From: Paenibacillus sp. JZ16
GTDB taxonomy: Bacteria > Bacillota > Bacilli > Paenibacillales > Paenibacillaceae
Direction: 5' to 3'
NCBI RefSeq assembly: GCF_015326965.1
Contig: NZ_CP017659.1
Span: 2,356,001-2,420,000, forward strand
DNA: 64,000 bases
The notes beneath the pieces are model-generated. The model had not been told where the DNA came from. It saw nothing but the letters and a program-made list of their open reading frames with translations, and searched no databases. The stretch's first letter is position 1; each line of letters opens with the position of its first letter. Positions 9,129 to 14,907 of the stretch are shown here, one piece after another. The position numbers and the translations under genes are program-made.

Positions 9129-10226
9129 GTGAAGGACAACATACATCATACCGACCTTATGGAAGCTGCGAAGCAGTTTATCGAGCTTTGTTATGCAGAA
9201 TTAAACCGTACCCCGGAAGAAGCCGAGGCCCGGCTCATGGACATCCGCTCACAGATCAAGCTGACAGGTACATATGAGCATACGCTTGAGGAACTATCGC
9301 ATGGGGCCAAAATGGCTTGGAGAAACAGCAACCGCTGTATCGGCAGACTGTTTTGGGATCGCCTAAAGGTAGTCGATGCCAGGCACTTAACCGAGACCTC
9401 TGACATTTTCTCAGCACTCCTTCATCATATCGAGATTGCCACCAATGGCGGAAAAATCATGCCTACGATTACGATTTTCAGGGCTGCACGTCCAGGGGAG
9501 GCCCCATTGATGATCAAAAACCACCAATTGATTCGGTATGCGGGTTACGAAACGCCAGACGGGACGGTTGGCGACCCGGCTTCCCTCTCCTTCACGAAGG
9601 AATGCATGGATCTGGGATGGCGGGGAGACTTGACCGACTATGATGTGCTGCCACTGGTTGTGCAGCAGGGGAATGAGCCTCCGGAATGGCTTCCGATACC
9701 GAAATCCCACGTGCTGGAGGTCCCCTTGGAGCATCCCGAACTTCCTGCTCTGAAAGCGGAAGGAGTAAAATGGTATGGGGTGCCTCTCATCTCGGACATG
9801 CTGCTTGAAATCGGCGGCATTATGTATACGGCCGCGCCGTTCAACGGCTGGTATATGGGAACCGAGATCGGAGCCCGTAACCTTGCAGACGAAGGGCGCT
9901 ACAACAAGCTTCCGCTTATTGCCAAGCTGATGGGACAGGATACTTCCAGCGAAACGACCTTATGGAGAGATCGCGCGTTGGTCGAGCTCAATGCTGCCGT
10001 ACTCTATTCCTATAAAAAAGCTGGCGTCAGCATCGTGGACCATCATTCGGCAGCATCCCAGTTCGGTTTGTTTGAACAGCGGGAACAGCAGGCCGGGCGG
10101 GAGCTCACAGGGGATTGGAGTTGGCTGATTCCTCCGGTCTCGCCCGCTACAACACATATTTTCCACAACTCTTATCATAACGACATCCGTTCGCCGAATT
10201 TTCATTACAGGAACAAGAAAAAGTAG
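9129..10226 (+). CDS. nos: Nitric oxide synthase oxygenase (bacterial NOS)
   Basis: Protein of 365 aa that corresponds to the heme oxygenase domain only, as in Bacillus NOS. The heme-thiolate Cys70 sits in the signature [10 protein letters not shown]. The substrate region with [20 protein letters not shown] and the pterin-side [17 protein letters not shown] segment are present. It oxidises L-arginine to citrulline and nitric oxide, using cellular flavodoxin or a reductase because no reductase domain is attached. The GTG start has AAAGGAG 9 nt upstream. It is a single gene with its own hairpin terminator. A role in oxidative stress protection is known for the family. Confidence 0.97.
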
Positions 10227-11457: not shown

Positions 11458-11880
11458 TTAGTACATCTCGTTCTTTAAATACTCACGGACATTTCCCGCA
11501 AATTGCTCCAGCACATCAGGCAGAATCGGGGTTAAAGAATGAAGCGTATGCCTCTCCCAATCATAGTAGTCCTGCACGAGCGGTTTGCGTAATCGGACCA
11601 GCTCCAGCAGCACCTTATGAACTTCTTCGGGGAATACCTTTTCCTCATGATTAATATCCATGATATCTTCATAACTGCTGGCATCCCGCATAATAAATCC
11701 GTCAATCAAGTAGCTGCCGACATCCGTCACGACTTCGATCGCCAGATGAAGCGCACGCTCCTGAACCAACCCCAGCACCAGGCCTCCGTCCCATGATTGT
11801 GCCGCAGCACGCAACCCTTCCGCAATTTCAGGAATCGCGCTCAGCCGCCGTTCAATTTGTTCTTGATTTACATAATACAC
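11458..11880 (-). CDS. DUF86/HepT-like protein, YutE type
   Basis: Helical protein of 140 aa that fits the HEPN/DUF86 fold. The middle part (AIEVVTDVGSYLIDGFIMRD, 48-66) and the following R98-x4-Q103-x-Y105 motif correspond to the HepT region, where active toxins have R-x4-H-x-Y. Here the catalytic His is Gln, so RNase or AMP-acceptor activity is unlikely. No MntA nucleotidyltransferase partner is adjacent. The GTG start follows GGAGGAG. Family call is good; function is unknown. Confidence 0.75.
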   Translation of the reverse strand: MYYVNQEQIERRLSAIPEIAEGLRAAAQSWDGGLVLGLVQERALHLAIEVVTDVGSYLIDGFIMRDASSYEDIMDINHEEKVFPEEVHKVLLELVRLRKPLVQDYYDWERHTLHSLTPILPDVLEQFAGNVREYLKNEMY

Positions 11881-12211: not shown

Positions 12212-12336
12212 CGTCCGTTCCTCCATCTCTAGCATGTATGTAAATCTTTCGTATCTATCATACCCCGTTCGTCCGGAAAAAGAAATCGCTCCCACCAACA
12301 TATCGGAAGATCGGCTGCGCCAGATCTAACCAAATA

Positions 12337-12371
12337 GGAGCACCGTCTGGCTTACACCAGAGCGTGCTCCT
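12337..12371. repeat. Inverted repeat between oxidoreductase and Dabb genes
   Basis: AGGAGCAC and TCTGG on the left pair with CCAGA and GTGCTCCT on the right around a short loop. No clear T-run follows on either strand. It may be a weak terminator of the minus-strand oxidoreductase gene. Confidence 0.5.
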
Positions 12372-12406: not shown

Positions 12407-13843
12407 TCACGAACTTAATTGATTCAGCATGTTCTGGGCAATCCAGACGCCGGCGGCTCCTGCCTGAGCAAGCCCCCTGGTAATGCCCGCACCATCACCG
12501 CCACAATAAAGTCCCTTGATTTCCGTCTCGAAGGACTCCGTCAGCTTCGGTCTTGCGGAGTAGAACTTGGCCTCCACCCCGTAGAACAATGTGTGCTCCG
12601 ACGCGATTCCCGGCGTGACTTTATCAAGCGCTTCGACCATCTCGATCAGGCTTTTCATGGTGTTGTACGGCAGCACCAAGCCAAGATCACCTGGAACGGC
12701 TTCCTTCAGCGTCGGCTCCAGAAACCCTTCGCGAATTCGGCCCTCGGTGGATCTCCGGCCGCGGAGCACGTCGCCGTATTTCTGTACAATAACCCCGCCG
12801 CTGGATAGGTCGTTAGCCCGCTTGCATATTTCACGCGCATATTCGTTCGGCTTGTCAAACGGCTCCGTAAACTTATGGGATACGAGCAGCGCAAAGTTCG
12901 TATTGGCTGATCCCAATGCCGGATCTTTATAAGAATGGCCATTGGCTGCCATAACCCCGCTATGGTTCTCAACCACAACATGACCGGAAGGATTGCTGCA
13001 GAACGTACGCACCCGGGTTCCCACCGAGGTGTTAAAGATGAATTTGCCTTCATACAAATGCTCATTGATCTCGCGCATGACCACATCCGAGGTTTCAACC
13101 CGAACGCCCACGTCCACCTGGTTATTATGCATTTTCAATCTGCGTTTTTTCAATACACTGGTCAACCAGGCAGAGCCGTCACGGCCAGGGGCGACCATCA
13201 CCAAATTCGCCTCATGGACCTCCCCGCCTTTCATTGCGATGCCGGTAACGCGATGGGCTCCGTCTTCTTTGACGGTGACAATGTCCTCGACCTCCGCCCG
13301 AAAAGCCATATCAATTCTTGTCTTCAAATATTCATATATCGACTTCAGTATCTCCAAATTCTGCTCGGTTCCAAGATGTCTTACCTGAGCGCGAAGCAGC
13401 TTCAGGCCCGCTGCGTATCCACGCTGTTCAATATCCCGGATCGCATTTGTTGTCGGATCCGTGATGGCAGGTGTTGCTCCGTGCTCCAGATTGATGGCGT
13501 CCACATATTCGATGAGCTCCATGACTTTGGAGCCTGGCAAATAATCGGTCATCCAGCCACCAAACTCCGTGGTTATGTTGAATTTGCCGTCGCTGTATGC
13601 TCCTGCCCCGCCAAATCCGGCTGTAATCGAGCAAGCCGGCAAACAACCGGCAAATTCCTTACGTCCTACTGCCGGTGGACAGAGCTTAATCTTCTCCTCC
13701 AGGATCGGGCAGCTTCTCCGGTAAATATCATGTCCCTTGTCAACTAATAGCACCTTGCTGCCTGGTGACTTTAACGTCAGTTCATAACAAGCGAAAATAC
13801 CGGCCGGACCGGCACCAACAACGATAACATCATATTTGCTCAT
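12407..13843 (-). CDS. NAD(P)/FAD-dependent oxidoreductase of unknown substrate, under a purine riboswitch
   Basis: Predicted cytoplasmic flavoprotein of 478 aa. The FAD-binding GAGPAG motif is at the N-terminus (residues 9-14), with a Cys-rich insertion (CPILEEKIKLCP and CLPAC, about 45-75) and a C-terminal GGDGAG..GLAQAGAAG FAD segment. It belongs to the broad uncharacterised FAD-dependent dehydrogenase group (COG2509-like). The start is the second of two adjacent ATGs, 5 nt after AGGGGG. Its leader carries a purine aptamer and a switchable terminator, so expression should answer to a purine base. This suggests a role in purine salvage or breakdown, but the substrate cannot be named. Confidence 0.88.
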   Translation of the reverse strand: MSKYDVIVVGAGPAGIFACYELTLKSPGSKVLLVDKGHDIYRRSCPILEEKIKLCPPAVGRKEFAGCLPACSITAGFGGAGAYSDGKFNITTEFGGWMTDYLPGSKVMELIEYVDAINLEHGATPAITDPTTNAIRDIEQRGYAAGLKLLRAQVRHLGTEQNLEILKSIYEYLKTRIDMAFRAEVEDIVTVKEDGAHRVTGIAMKGGEVHEANLVMVAPGRDGSAWLTSVLKKRRLKMHNNQVDVGVRVETSDVVMREINEHLYEGKFIFNTSVGTRVRTFCSNPSGHVVVENHSGVMAANGHSYKDPALGSANTNFALLVSHKFTEPFDKPNEYAREICKRANDLSSGGVIVQKYGDVLRGRRSTEGRIREGFLEPTLKEAVPGDLGLVLPYNTMKSLIEMVEALDKVTPGIASEHTLFYGVEAKFYSARPKLTESFETEIKGLYCGGDGAGITRGLAQAGAAGVWIAQNMLNQLSS

Positions 13844-13896: not shown

Positions 13897-13949
13897 AAAA
13901 AAATCCTGCTCCGAATAGGTATGCTTGCGCATCCTATTCGTAGTCAGGA
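13897..13949 (-). terminator. Riboswitch expression platform: intrinsic terminator
   Basis: On the minus strand, the 5 bp TCCTG/CAGGA, 2 bp CT/AG, 8 bp CGAATAGG/CCTATTCG and 4 bp ATGC/GCAT stack into one hairpin with a GCAA tetraloop, followed by seven T (13897-13903). Its 5' arm uses the 3' strands of aptamer stems P3 and P1 and the J3/1 linker, so the terminator and the ligand-bound aptamer cannot form together. Confidence 0.85.
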
Positions 13950-14005
13950 ATTTAAGGTCCCTTGTAGAAACCCCTGAACCTTATTTTCAGGGATATACGA
14001 ATAAG
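13933..14005 (-). ncRNA. Purine riboswitch aptamer, guanine-type, in the oxidoreductase leader
   Basis: Reading the minus strand, P1 is CTTATTCGTA with TACGAATAGG, and P2 is CCCTGAA with TTCAGGG around loop AATAAGG. J2/3 contains GTTTCTAC, P3 is short with loop CCTTAAAT, and J3/1 is GACT. These are the conserved parts of the purine aptamer. The base that pairs with the ligand (xpt position 74) is C, which predicts guanine or hypoxanthine rather than adenine. The linker between P1 and P2 is about one nt shorter than in xpt. Its terminator overlaps P1, giving an arrangement like pbuE. Confidence 0.93.
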
Positions 14006-14033
14006 CATCTTTTTTTCTTCATCAACCATTGTT

Positions 14034-14062
14034 AATATAAAACGAATTCACGAATGAGTCAA
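14034..14062 (-). promoter_or_regulatory. Sigma-A promoter of the riboswitch transcript
   Basis: TTGACT (14057-14062) and TATATT (14034-14039) are separated by exactly 17 nt on the minus strand. Transcription should begin near 14027, about 20 nt before the aptamer. Confidence 0.8.
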
Positions 14063-14255: not shown

Positions 14256-14285
14256 TTGAAAAGTGAGTGTCGAATATTGTAGTAT
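14256..14285 (+). promoter_or_regulatory. Probable promoter of the two-HTH regulator
   Basis: TTGAAA (14256-14261) and TAGTAT (14280-14285) are 18 nt apart on the plus strand, with the start codon 25 nt downstream. Confidence 0.5.
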
Positions 14286-14310
14286 TGTGTTAAAAAAAAT
14301 CGGAGGAATT

Positions 14311-14907
14311 ATGCCTACACAACTGCAGCAAGAAAAACACTCCATTGAGGCGTGGTCCCTGATCAATCGTAAATATTTGGGGAAAGGTGTGCGAGTCAAG
14401 CGCTTTCGCCGGCCGACCCGCTGCCAAATTCGCAACCGCGTCCTACTAGCCGTACTTATGGCCAACGATATCAAATTATCGCAATTGGCCGAGGAACTGG
14501 GAGTATCCTCTCGTAGTGTCAGCGCCTGGGTATATGAGGGACGCGTTCCCGGAAAAAACAACCTGGAGAGGGCCTGCGACTATTTGGGTTATCCCCGTCA
14601 CATTCTCTTCAGGGAGGAACTGCTGGACAAGTCACCTTTAATCTGCCAGCCGGCACCTTCCCGCTTCATGAAACGCACCCTGACACGCTCACCCGTTAGC
14701 AATCGGATTCTGACAGGCCTGTGCATGGTTCATGACTTGTCGGTAAGCGATGTTAGCCGCTGGATCGGCGTACATCCTGGCACATTCCGCAAATGGCTGC
14801 ACCAGGGCACCGTACCATCCGCAGCGTTCCAGGAAAAAGCGGAACAGTTCTTCCGGATCCCTAAATCTGTTCTATTTGCAGATTGCGCACTAAAGCAAAA
14901 TTCATAA
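14311..14907 (+). CDS. DNA-binding protein with two internal helix-turn-helix repeats
   Basis: Protein of 198 aa built from two copies of one unit: residues 42-100 (NRVLLAVLMANDIKLSQLAE..HILF) and 131-189 (NRILTGLCMVHDLSVSDVSR..SVLF). Each has an XRE-like helix-turn-helix with matching hydrophobic positions and a conserved W in the recognition helix (SAWVYEGRVP and RKWLHQGTVP). A basic N-terminus (KRFRRPTR, 30-37) and a linker of about 30 aa join the parts. One chain could bind a two-half-site operator alone. ATG at 14311 follows GGAGG by 4 nt; an earlier in-frame codon is not supported. Target genes are unknown. Confidence 0.78.
   Translation: MPTQLQQEKHSIEAWSLINRKYLGKGVRVKRFRRPTRCQIRNRVLLAVLMANDIKLSQLAEELGVSSRSVSAWVYEGRVPGKNNLERACDYLGYPRHILFREELLDKSPLICQPAPSRFMKRTLTRSPVSNRILTGLCMVHDLSVSDVSRWIGVHPGTFRKWLHQGTVPSAAFQEKAEQFFRIPKSVLFADCALKQNS

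What the first reader, a model, noticed from the sequence alone, without database searches (positions are those of the whole stretch)
13897..14062. Guanine-type purine riboswitch with an ON-switch layout, controlling an uncharacterised flavoprotein
The aptamer has C at the ligand-pairing base (as in xpt), which predicts guanine or hypoxanthine. The downstream terminator uses the 3' strands of P1 and P3 and J3/1 as its 5' arm, so ligand-bound aptamer and terminator exclude each other. That is the arrangement of the adenine pbuE ON switch. Classical guanine riboswitches are OFF switches. The gene it controls is an FAD-dependent oxidoreductase of unknown substrate, not a known purine gene. If correct, purine surplus turns on a flavoprotein that may break down or modify purines.
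Basis: partly seen in the sequence, partly recalled or inferred. Interest (0 to 1): 0.8.

Follow-up and report, generated by a model that had tools for sequence, protein, structure and literature searches.

The report
Guanine-type ON riboswitch before flavoprotein gene
A small RNA switch of the guanine-sensing kind sits in front of a gene for an enzyme of unknown job, and its layout, kept in the close relatives examined, suggests that surplus guanine switches the gene on rather than off as is usual for this kind of switch.

Summary
On the minus strand, 14020-13921 is an RF00167 purine aptamer (75.9 bits) with C at nt 74. An intrinsic terminator (13949-13904, then seven U) takes its 5' arm from P3, J3/1 and P1. 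In silico the aptamer holds until the terminator's 3' arm is made; the terminator then wins by 13.9 kcal/mol, and no upstream antiterminator was found. This is the pbuE (adenine ON) layout on a guanine-type pocket.

It is conserved: 80 of 80 fetched orthologous loci (best 80 of 388) have a C74 aptamer and 74 of 80 meet a strict overlap test. Of 27 Paenibacillaceae genomes, 11 have the flavoprotein and 11 of 11 have the switch. Among 113 purine riboswitches, purE (0 of 25) and xpt (0 of 14) lack the layout; besides the flavoprotein, C74 ON layouts precede EamA transporters, a permease paralogue and an amidohydrolase. Ligand, direction and substrate are unmeasured. Guanine-II riboswitches of Paenibacillus are already predicted ON, so "guanine ON" has a precedent; what appears new is the ON layout on a guanine-I-like pocket and its link to an orphan flavoprotein, whose substrate I could not infer.

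The parts
14034..14062 (-). Promoter-like TTGACT-17-TATATT; transcription start inferred near 14027
   Evidence: 10 of 12 consensus matches; 6 promoter-like sites found in the stretch, 2.1 expected by shuffling; start position inferred
13921..14020 (-). Purine riboswitch aptamer (RF00167 match)
   Evidence: 75.9 bits, E 1e-11, model 1-102
13996..14005 (-). P1 5' strand (pairs with 13942-13933)
   Evidence: 8 P1 pairs counted over 71 rows
13972..13992 (-). P2/L2 hairpin, 7 bp, loop AAUAAGG
   Evidence: all 7 pairs show changes on both sides
13964..13971 (-). J2/3 GUUUCUAC (nt 46-53; U47, U51)
13946..13962 (-). P3/L3 hairpin, 5 bp; nt 54 (A, 13963) and nt 72 (G, 13945) form an A.G mismatch at its junction side
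   Evidence: (marked non-standard pair)
13943..13945 (-). J3/1 G72 A73 C74; C74 (13943) is the predicted ligand-pairing base
13933..13942 (-). P1 3' strand, shared with the terminator 5' arm
13897..13949 (-). Intrinsic terminator (stem 13949-13904, U7 13903-13897); its top is a P4-like hairpin AUGC-GCAA-GCAU (13932-13921) that can form beside the intact aptamer
12407..13843 (-). FAD-dependent oxidoreductase-like protein (PF21688 C-terminal domain), the gene under control
   Evidence: start at ATG 13843 from the RBS and from relatives that begin there
12333..12371 (-). Hairpin GGAGCAC...GTGCTCC then TATTTGG after the flavoprotein gene, possible weak terminator: gene perhaps monocistronic
   Evidence: read in the sequence; not reported by the pattern scan

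Best explanation
A transcriptional ON riboswitch. The nascent RNA folds P1-P2-P3 with a guanine-I-like pocket (U22, U47, U51, C74). If guanine (possibly hypoxanthine) is bound, P1 and the junction are locked and polymerase passes the U-tract, making the flavoprotein mRNA. Without ligand, a P4-like hairpin just after P1 nucleates strand exchange through P1, J3/1 and P3, completing the terminator and stopping transcription. Shown here by sequence and computation: aptamer, terminator, their shared strands, fold energies, conservation. Inferred: ligand identity, direction in the cell, kinetic control. The flavoprotein is most likely part of a response to purine excess; its substrate is unknown.
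For: RF00167 match with C74. The aptamer is the MFE fold, or equal to it, up to 110 nt of the transcript; at the U-tract the terminator is favoured by 13.9 kcal/mol. Over the 80 loci the median gap at the U-tract is 13.4 kcal/mol and at least 5 in 76 of 80. 80 of 80 loci have the C74 aptamer, 74 of 80 meet the strict three-region overlap; 74 of 79 observed against 234 of 1975 shuffled. The strand holding P3 3' and J3/1 pairs better with its own terminator arm (mean -11.0 kcal/mol) than with arms of loci that differ there (-8.4); own better than the swap mean in 62 of 79. nt 73 varies A/G/U and its partner in the hairpin varies with it. P1-P3 covariation: 13 of 20 pairs change on both sides. 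11 of 11 flavoprotein-bearing genomes among 27 have the switch directly upstream. The same overlap test gives 0 of 25 purE and 0 of 14 xpt switches but 10 of 10 adenine-type switches before adeC-, pbuE- and adenosine-deaminase-like genes (9 called U74 by the script, L126 by eye). pbuE mechanism as described in PMC7707468 (passages read).
Against: No binding or transcription data. The 80 loci are the closest 80 of 388, so conservation is over near relatives (82-99% protein identity). Own-versus-swapped pairing fails in 17 of 79. Just after the aptamer is made, the forced aptamer is within 2 kcal/mol of the MFE in only 59 of 80 loci (four loci had short helices in that script). In the window a different fold, in which the first leader bases pair near L3, is as good as the aptamer at 90 nt and is part of the full-length MFE. 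Fold energies ignore ligand, Mg2+ and kinetics. Survey member L189 has the hairpin but only UUU after it. The 54-72 mismatch also occurs in permease-type switches that lack the ON layout, so it is not a mark of ON switching.
Confidence: 0.8

Rival explanations
1. Same ON device but the natural ligand is not guanine: hypoxanthine, a guanine nucleoside, xanthine or another purine, because the junction carries uncommon bases (nt 54 A, nt 73 mostly G in relatives, nt 24 U).
For: nt 54 is A in 69 of 80, nt 73 G in 57 and U in 4 of 80; nt 24 U in 64 of 71. Related Paenibacillus aptamers with junction changes bind xanthine or discriminate differently (PMC9295807, results section read). The controlled gene is not a known purine gene.
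Against: The bases that paper names as guanine contacts (U22, U51, C74) are invariant in 71 of 71 aligned rows; the window's own nt 73 is A; xanthine-II carries U51G, absent here.
Confidence: 0.2
2. It is a member of the described guanine-II class (predicted ON in Paenibacillus), not a guanine-I-like variant: J2/3 could be read as GUUUCUACA, one nucleotide longer, since nt 54 does not pair.
For: Guanine-II is described with a one-nucleotide J2-3 insertion, U51 and C74 kept, ON direction predicted, in Paenibacillus (PMC9295807).
Against: The class is also described as carrying most other xanthine-II changes, which include a J3-1 insertion. The one RNA here that fits that text, L129, before a gene I read as PRT-like from its sequence (not family-searched), has J3/1 CCAGGC; in the flavoprotein switches J3/1 is mostly GAC, GGC or GUC, and six of 80 (L060-L062, L065, L080, L086) have C54, G72 and A73 as in guanine-I. 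The paper's 55 members are most commonly before PRT genes and its main text does not hold the word oxidoreductase; its Fig. 2 and SI were not seen.
Confidence: 0.2
3. An OFF switch or a mere attenuator: some antiterminator or a second structure reverses the direction, or the terminator is constitutive.
For: Guanine-I switches in Paenibacillus are predicted OFF (PMC9295807). A competing fold of leader and L3 region exists in the window.
Against: Terminator and P1/J3/1/P3 use the same strands and cannot coexist; the 5' leader is short (22-24 nt) and its best duplex with the terminator region (-6.1 kcal/mol) is no better than that of shuffled leaders (-8.1, sd 2.0); the layout is kept in relatives with compensating changes.
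Confidence: 0.05
4. The flavoprotein has nothing to do with purine chemistry; guanine only reports a growth state (for example nucleotide excess or GTP level) and the enzyme does general redox work.
For: No recurrent purine gene seen beside it (judged by eye); more distant same-phylum orthologues at 60-75% identity lack the switch (0 of 10 scanned of 15 fetched); structure hits are generic FAD enzymes apart from the uncharacterised VP0956; presence does not track PF02738 proteins: 7 of 11 genomes with, 9 of 16 without the flavoprotein.
Against: Other C74 ON layouts in the family precede genes of purine-type families: an NCS2 permease paralogue and an amidohydrolase of the deaminase kind, besides EamA transporters; one distant orthologue (L093) lies directly after a selenium-dependent xanthine dehydrogenase gene.
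Confidence: 0.45

Closest known systems
Bacillus subtilis pbuE adenine riboswitch (purine class, transcriptional ON)
   Same: Terminator invades P1, J3/1 and P3 of the aptamer; a P4 hairpin beside the aptamer; ligand-bound aptamer and terminator exclude each other (PMC7707468, passages read; here).
   Different: C74 instead of U74, so guanine/hypoxanthine type; controls a flavoprotein, not an efflux pump.
Guanine-I riboswitches (xpt, purE, pbuG)
   Same: RF00167 architecture; J2/3 GUUUCUAC, U22, U51, C74.
   Different: Described as OFF switches; in the survey 0 of 25 purE and 0 of 14 xpt switches show the terminator overlap. P3 is 5 bp with an A.G mismatch at 54-72; controls an orphan flavoprotein.
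Guanine-II riboswitches of Paenibacillus (PMC9295807)
   Same: Guanine type, predicted ON, same genus; a possible one-nucleotide longer J2/3.
   Different: J3/1 lacks the long insertion seen in the guanine-II-like L129; gene is not a phosphoribosyltransferase.
Xanthine-II and 2'-dG-III riboswitches (PMC9295807)
   Same: Three-way junction purine fold with ON architecture before genes of purine degradation or nucleoside hydrolysis, as that paper states.
   Different: U51G of xanthine-II is absent here; 2'-dG-III is described with changes in all three joining regions, here the contact bases are those of guanine-I.
VP0956 of Vibrio parahaemolyticus (PDB 3nlc), uncharacterised FAD-dependent protein
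   Different: In its weak N-terminal alignment VP0956 lacks the four cysteines (residues 46-72) that are invariant in 28 of 28 aligned relatives here.

Membership tests
Purine riboswitch aptamer (RF00167) | Covariance-model score over the gathering cut-off | tested here: met
   75.9 bits against 37
Purine riboswitch aptamer (RF00167) | Three-way junction with covarying P1, P2, P3 | tested here: met
   94.6% of cells paired, 13 of 20 pairs with changes on both sides; slid controls 34-52% paired
Guanine-I riboswitch | Contact bases U22, U51, C74 | tested here: met
   all three in the window and invariant in 71 of 71 rows
Guanine-I riboswitch | Binds guanine with high affinity | not testable with these tools
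   needs in-line probing
Guanine-I riboswitch | OFF expression platform (as described for Paenibacillus) | tested here: not met
   terminator overlaps P1, J3/1, P3
Guanine-II riboswitch | One-nucleotide insertion in J2-3 with U51 kept | tested here: inconclusive
   nt 54 is A facing G72: reads either as a P3 mismatch or as an insertion
Guanine-II riboswitch | J3-1 insertion shared with xanthine-II | tested here: inconclusive
   J3/1 is GAC here against CCAGGC in the guanine-II-like L129, which speaks against membership; but the class consensus figure was not seen
pbuE-type ON expression platform | Terminator 5' arm made of P1 3', J3/1, P3 3', with a P4 hairpin that can form beside the aptamer | tested here: met
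pbuE-type ON expression platform | Ligand raises read-through | not testable with these tools
   needs single-round transcription
PF21688 FAD-dependent protein, C-terminal domain-like | Score over the Pfam gathering cut-off | tested here: met
   37.8 bits against 27; GIDA, Pyr_redox_2, FAD_binding_2 and NAD_binding_8 also exceed their cut-offs, mostly over short stretches
Named FAD enzyme families in NCBIfam | Score over a curated cut-off | tested here: not met
   none of the families listed reaches its cut-off; best 27.3 bits against 432 (the best 25 of 53 shown)

The most novel reading that the evidence does not exclude
Paenibacillaceae run a guanine-activated regulon through C74 aptamers on pbuE-type ON platforms: an orphan flavoprotein, an EamA-family transporter, one purine-permease paralogue and an amidohydrolase, all for disposing of or using surplus purine; and the flavoprotein is an undescribed purine-modifying enzyme.
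Probability: 0.3. Interest if true: 0.75.

Novelty: new variant of a known kind. Interest (0 to 1): 0.52.

Why it matters
It gives an unassigned flavoprotein family a regulatory clue (purine excess) and a cheap test. The family is common: 214 of 249 same-phylum genomes have a match at E 0.001 or better, though the weakest are partial. It suggests that the guanine-type pocket is naturally joined to the strand-invasion ON platform, a combination that designers found does not work by simple grafting of the xpt aptamer (PMC7707468: destabilising P3/L2-L3 and P2 changes were needed). The P3 of C74 ON switches here is weaker as a group (median -3.4 kcal/mol, n 27) than in other C74 switches (-5.1, n 68), in line with that work, although the EamA subgroup (-6.7) goes the other way. 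It also warns against reading gene direction from aptamer class alone when annotating purine riboswitches.

Tried and rejected
Conserved operon partners: a loose clustering of ORFs gave clusters of up to 23 loci, but these join unrelated kinase-like and transporter-like proteins. With stricter clusters (77 near loci including the window and 19 distant loci had a flavoprotein ORF in the script), the commonest family immediately downstream is in 6 of 77 (the Dabb protein of the window's own group), the commonest immediately upstream in 13 of 77, always on the other strand; one upstream family spans near and distant loci (5 and 1). None looked like a purine gene by eye; only a few were family-searched. 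Neighbours of distant orthologues were read by eye; four were family-searched and only the Se-dependent xanthine dehydrogenase in L093 bears on purines: one of 15 loci at 60-75% identity, so a hint.

Molybdenum hydroxylase partner: PF02738 absent in G000 (controls positive in 5 of 14) and present over the cut-off in 7 of 11 flavoprotein-bearing against 9 of 16 other genomes: no association. Two of the 16 have a 33-35% identical relative of the flavoprotein.

Enzyme identity by Pfam, NCBIfam, PDB sequence and fold: no named function. A fold that is not listed is not excluded.

The first survey script failed on a search-range bug and was redone; the looser ON flag also marked distant hairpins (some permease, purE and other rows) and was replaced by the tight test. 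In one search two of four amidohydrolase switches (L115, L116) were missed because a U-run lies inside the stem; explicit folds show the layout. In the P3 comparison three permease switches that passed the tight test weakly (L138, L161, L170) were counted as not ON. L054 was cut at an early U-run and left out; a longer fold is. Ten of the 80 loci (chosen by me as near-duplicates or with a long insert) were not put in alignment A1 (70 loci plus the window), and MAFFT does not align the terminator 3' arm well, so covariation of the terminator was tested by arm swapping, not on the alignment.

Literature searches: in the listings I saw no report of this switch or gene association; the library lacks most subscription journals, and figures and SI of PMC9295807 were not seen. 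In PMC3766115 a word search of the main text found no Paenibacillus, flavoprotein or FAD.

Full report
What is there. On the minus strand of the window, Rfam's purine riboswitch model matches 14020-13921 over its full length with 75.9 bits (cut-off 37). The junction has J2/3 GUUUCUAC and J3/1 G-A-C; the base equivalent to C74 of xpt (numbering recalled, C74 and U22/U51 named in PMC9295807) is C at 13943. P1 is up to 10 bp, P2 7 bp, P3 5 bp, with A54 (13963) facing G72 (13945), marked as a non-standard pair in the Rfam alignment. A promoter-like TTGACT-17-TATATT lies at 14062-14034, which puts the start of the RNA near 14027 (inferred). After P1, AUGC-GCAA-GCAU and then CCUAUUCG...CAGGA-UUUUUUU complete an intrinsic terminator whose 5' arm is UCCUG-ACUA-CGAAUAGG, that is the 3' strand of P3, J3/1 and the 3' strand of P1. 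The gene that follows on the same strand encodes 478-479 residues with a Pfam FAD-depend_C domain.

Is it more than chance. Keeping the aptamer strand and shuffling the rest, 0 of 2000 shuffles matched the engagement at -20 kcal/mol or lower (observed -25.5). Folding transcripts of growing length, the aptamer is the MFE fold, or equal to it, up to 110 nt, with the P4-like hairpin beside it from 106 nt; from 114 nt on the other fold leads, and at 130 nt it is 13.9 kcal/mol lower. In that fold the first leader bases also pair near L3, an alternative that already equals the aptamer at 90 nt; it is a competitor of the aptamer, not an antiterminator. The leader 5' of P1 (22-24 nt) pairs no better with the terminator region than shuffled leaders do (-6.1 against -8.1, sd 2.0).

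Conservation. A scan of GTDB genomes with the flavoprotein gave 388 relatives, of which the best 80 were kept: Paenibacillus, Brevibacillus, Cohnella and a few allies, 82-99% identical. A C74 aptamer was located upstream in 80 of 80 (73 by a first pattern; the other seven read; all 80 by the revised pattern). Fifteen of these 80 were also run through Rfam: 15 of 15 match, one only just (L034, 37.1 bits). In 74 of 80 the terminator takes at least 3 nt of P3 3', 1 of J3/1 and 3 of P1 3' (the six others fall short in one region or, L054, were cut early); the shuffled rate is 234 of 1975. Across 71 aligned rows bases 20-23, 46, 47, 49-52 and 74-76 never change, and P1-P3 show 13 of 20 pairs with changes on both sides. 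nt 73, inside the pocket strand, is A, G or U and its partner in the hairpin changes with it (A-U 13, G-C 40, G-U 12, U-A 2, U-G 2, unpaired 11). Swapping terminator arms between loci weakens the pairing (mean -11.0 own, -8.4 swapped), own better in 62 of 79.

A less biased sample. In 26 Paenibacillaceae genomes plus G219, 11 of 27 carry the flavoprotein at 82% identity or more, and two more a 33-35% relative; in 11 of 11 an RF00167 match lies 63-179 bases upstream on the same strand. By contrast 0 of 10 scanned loci (of 15 fetched) with 60-75% identical orthologues from more distant genomes of the same phylum have an RF00167 match. The switch is thus tied to the gene among the near relatives and may be a lineage-specific addition.

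The other purine switches of these genomes. I took all 113 RF00167 hits (104 in the 26 genomes, 9 in G219) and asked whether a terminator within 60 nt uses nt 66-74. purE 0 of 25, xpt 0 of 14, purQ/L 0 of 2, C74 adenine-deaminase-like 0 of 3, NCS2 permeases 8 of 32 (five being one distinct paralogue with strong hairpins), flavoprotein 10 of 11 (the eleventh, L189, has the hairpin but a UUU tail), EamA transporter 7 of 7, amidohydrolase 2 of 4 by the script and 4 of 4 by explicit fold, xanthine-II-like 0 of 4, guanine-II-like 0 of 1, and 10 of 10 adenine-type switches (9 called U74, L126 by eye; adenine deaminase 5, pbuE-like 4, adenosine-deaminase-like 1). Gene labels are my reading; family searches were run on one member each of the EamA (PF00892), amidohydrolase (over the NCBIfam cut-off for 5'-deoxyadenosine deaminase) and permease-paralogue (PF00860) groups. 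The test thus separates adenine-type switches, described as ON, from purE and xpt, described as OFF, and puts the flavoprotein switch with the ON group. It does not flag the few xanthine-II-like and guanine-II-like RNAs, which the literature predicts to be ON, so it misses other ON layouts.

P3 is weaker in the C74 ON group (median -3.4 kcal/mol, n 27) than in other C74 switches (-5.1, n 68), which fits the finding that guanine aptamers need a destabilised P3/L2-L3, among other changes, to work with the pbuE platform (PMC7707468, passages read). Against this, the EamA subgroup has a strong P3 (-6.7), and permease-type switches without the layout also carry 54-72 mismatches, so this is supporting only.

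How it most likely works. As pbuE: ligand-gated strand exchange. P4 nucleates, the growing 3' arm invades P1, and, unless ligand has locked the junction, goes on through J3/1 and P3 to complete the terminator. With C74, U51 and U22 the ligand should be guanine, with hypoxanthine second. Direction and ligand are inference from sequence, supported by comparison.

The enzyme. Pfam gives PF21688 and several general FAD-domain matches over their cut-offs, NCBIfam none over a cut-off among those listed. The one PDB sequence relative over most of the length is VP0956 (3nlc), uncharacterised. The AlphaFold2 model has mean pLDDT 85.1. Four cysteines (46, 56, 68, 72) are invariant in 28 of 28 aligned relatives and absent from VP0956 in its weak N-terminal alignment; part of their segment is low-confidence in the model, and they may bind an Fe-S cluster or form redox disulfides (inference). 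No neighbour family recurs directly beside it in more than 13 of 77 near loci. One distant orthologue follows a selenium-dependent xanthine dehydrogenase gene. This genome has no PF02738 protein. I cannot name the substrate; a purine or a product of purine breakdown is the leading guess, at about even odds.

Comparison with what is known. Guanine-II riboswitches of Paenibacillus are predicted ON switches, most commonly before phosphoribosyltransferase genes, while guanine-I there is predicted OFF (PMC9295807, results section read; passages). The RNA here keeps guanine-I J2/3 and a short J3/1, unlike the guanine-II-like L129 with J3/1 CCAGGC, though its A54 could be read as the one-nucleotide J2-3 insertion. 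I therefore call it a guanine-I-like aptamer on an ON platform, class membership open. In the listings of ten paper searches I saw no mention of it.

Verdict. Real, conserved among near relatives, and most likely a guanine-activated switch; a new variant of a known kind with a useful new gene link. The enzyme's link to purines is unproven.

Noticed in passing
   Followed up: partly
L122, L130, L208-L211, L213: C74 purine aptamers, with a long atypical P2/L2 in L122 and L130 (others not read), and ON-type terminators before transporters that cluster with the EamA protein of L122; low Rfam scores of 37-49 bits for all seven: a candidate divergent guanine-type group.
   Followed up: partly
L158, L176, L183, L196, L212: ON-type C74 switches before one paralogue of the NCS2 permease family, while most other members of the same cluster lack the layout.
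   Followed up: partly
window 13934-13917 minus, top of the terminator: The P4-like top of the terminator looks more conserved (UGC-loop-GCAUACC with a bulge) than pairing alone needs, mostly in Paenibacillus and partly in Brevibacillus; may set the speed of strand exchange.
   Followed up: no
window 12407-13843 minus, residues 46-72 of the protein: Four invariant cysteines in a segment not matched in the solved relative VP0956; possible Fe-S cluster or redox disulfides.
   Followed up: partly
   Followed up: partly
window 9129-10226 plus: Bacterial nitric oxide synthase oxygenase domain (PF02898, 532 bits).
   Followed up: no
window 14263-14907 plus: Divergent gene with two helix-turn-helix stretches, found beside the flavoprotein only in the window and five near relatives.
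   Followed up: no
window 11458-11880 minus: HepT-like RNase domain protein (PF01934) two genes downstream; I did not look for an antitoxin partner.
   Followed up: no
L002: C74 (guanine-type) aptamer before an adenine-deaminase-like gene in the same genome, where five other family members have U74 ON switches before that gene.
   Followed up: no
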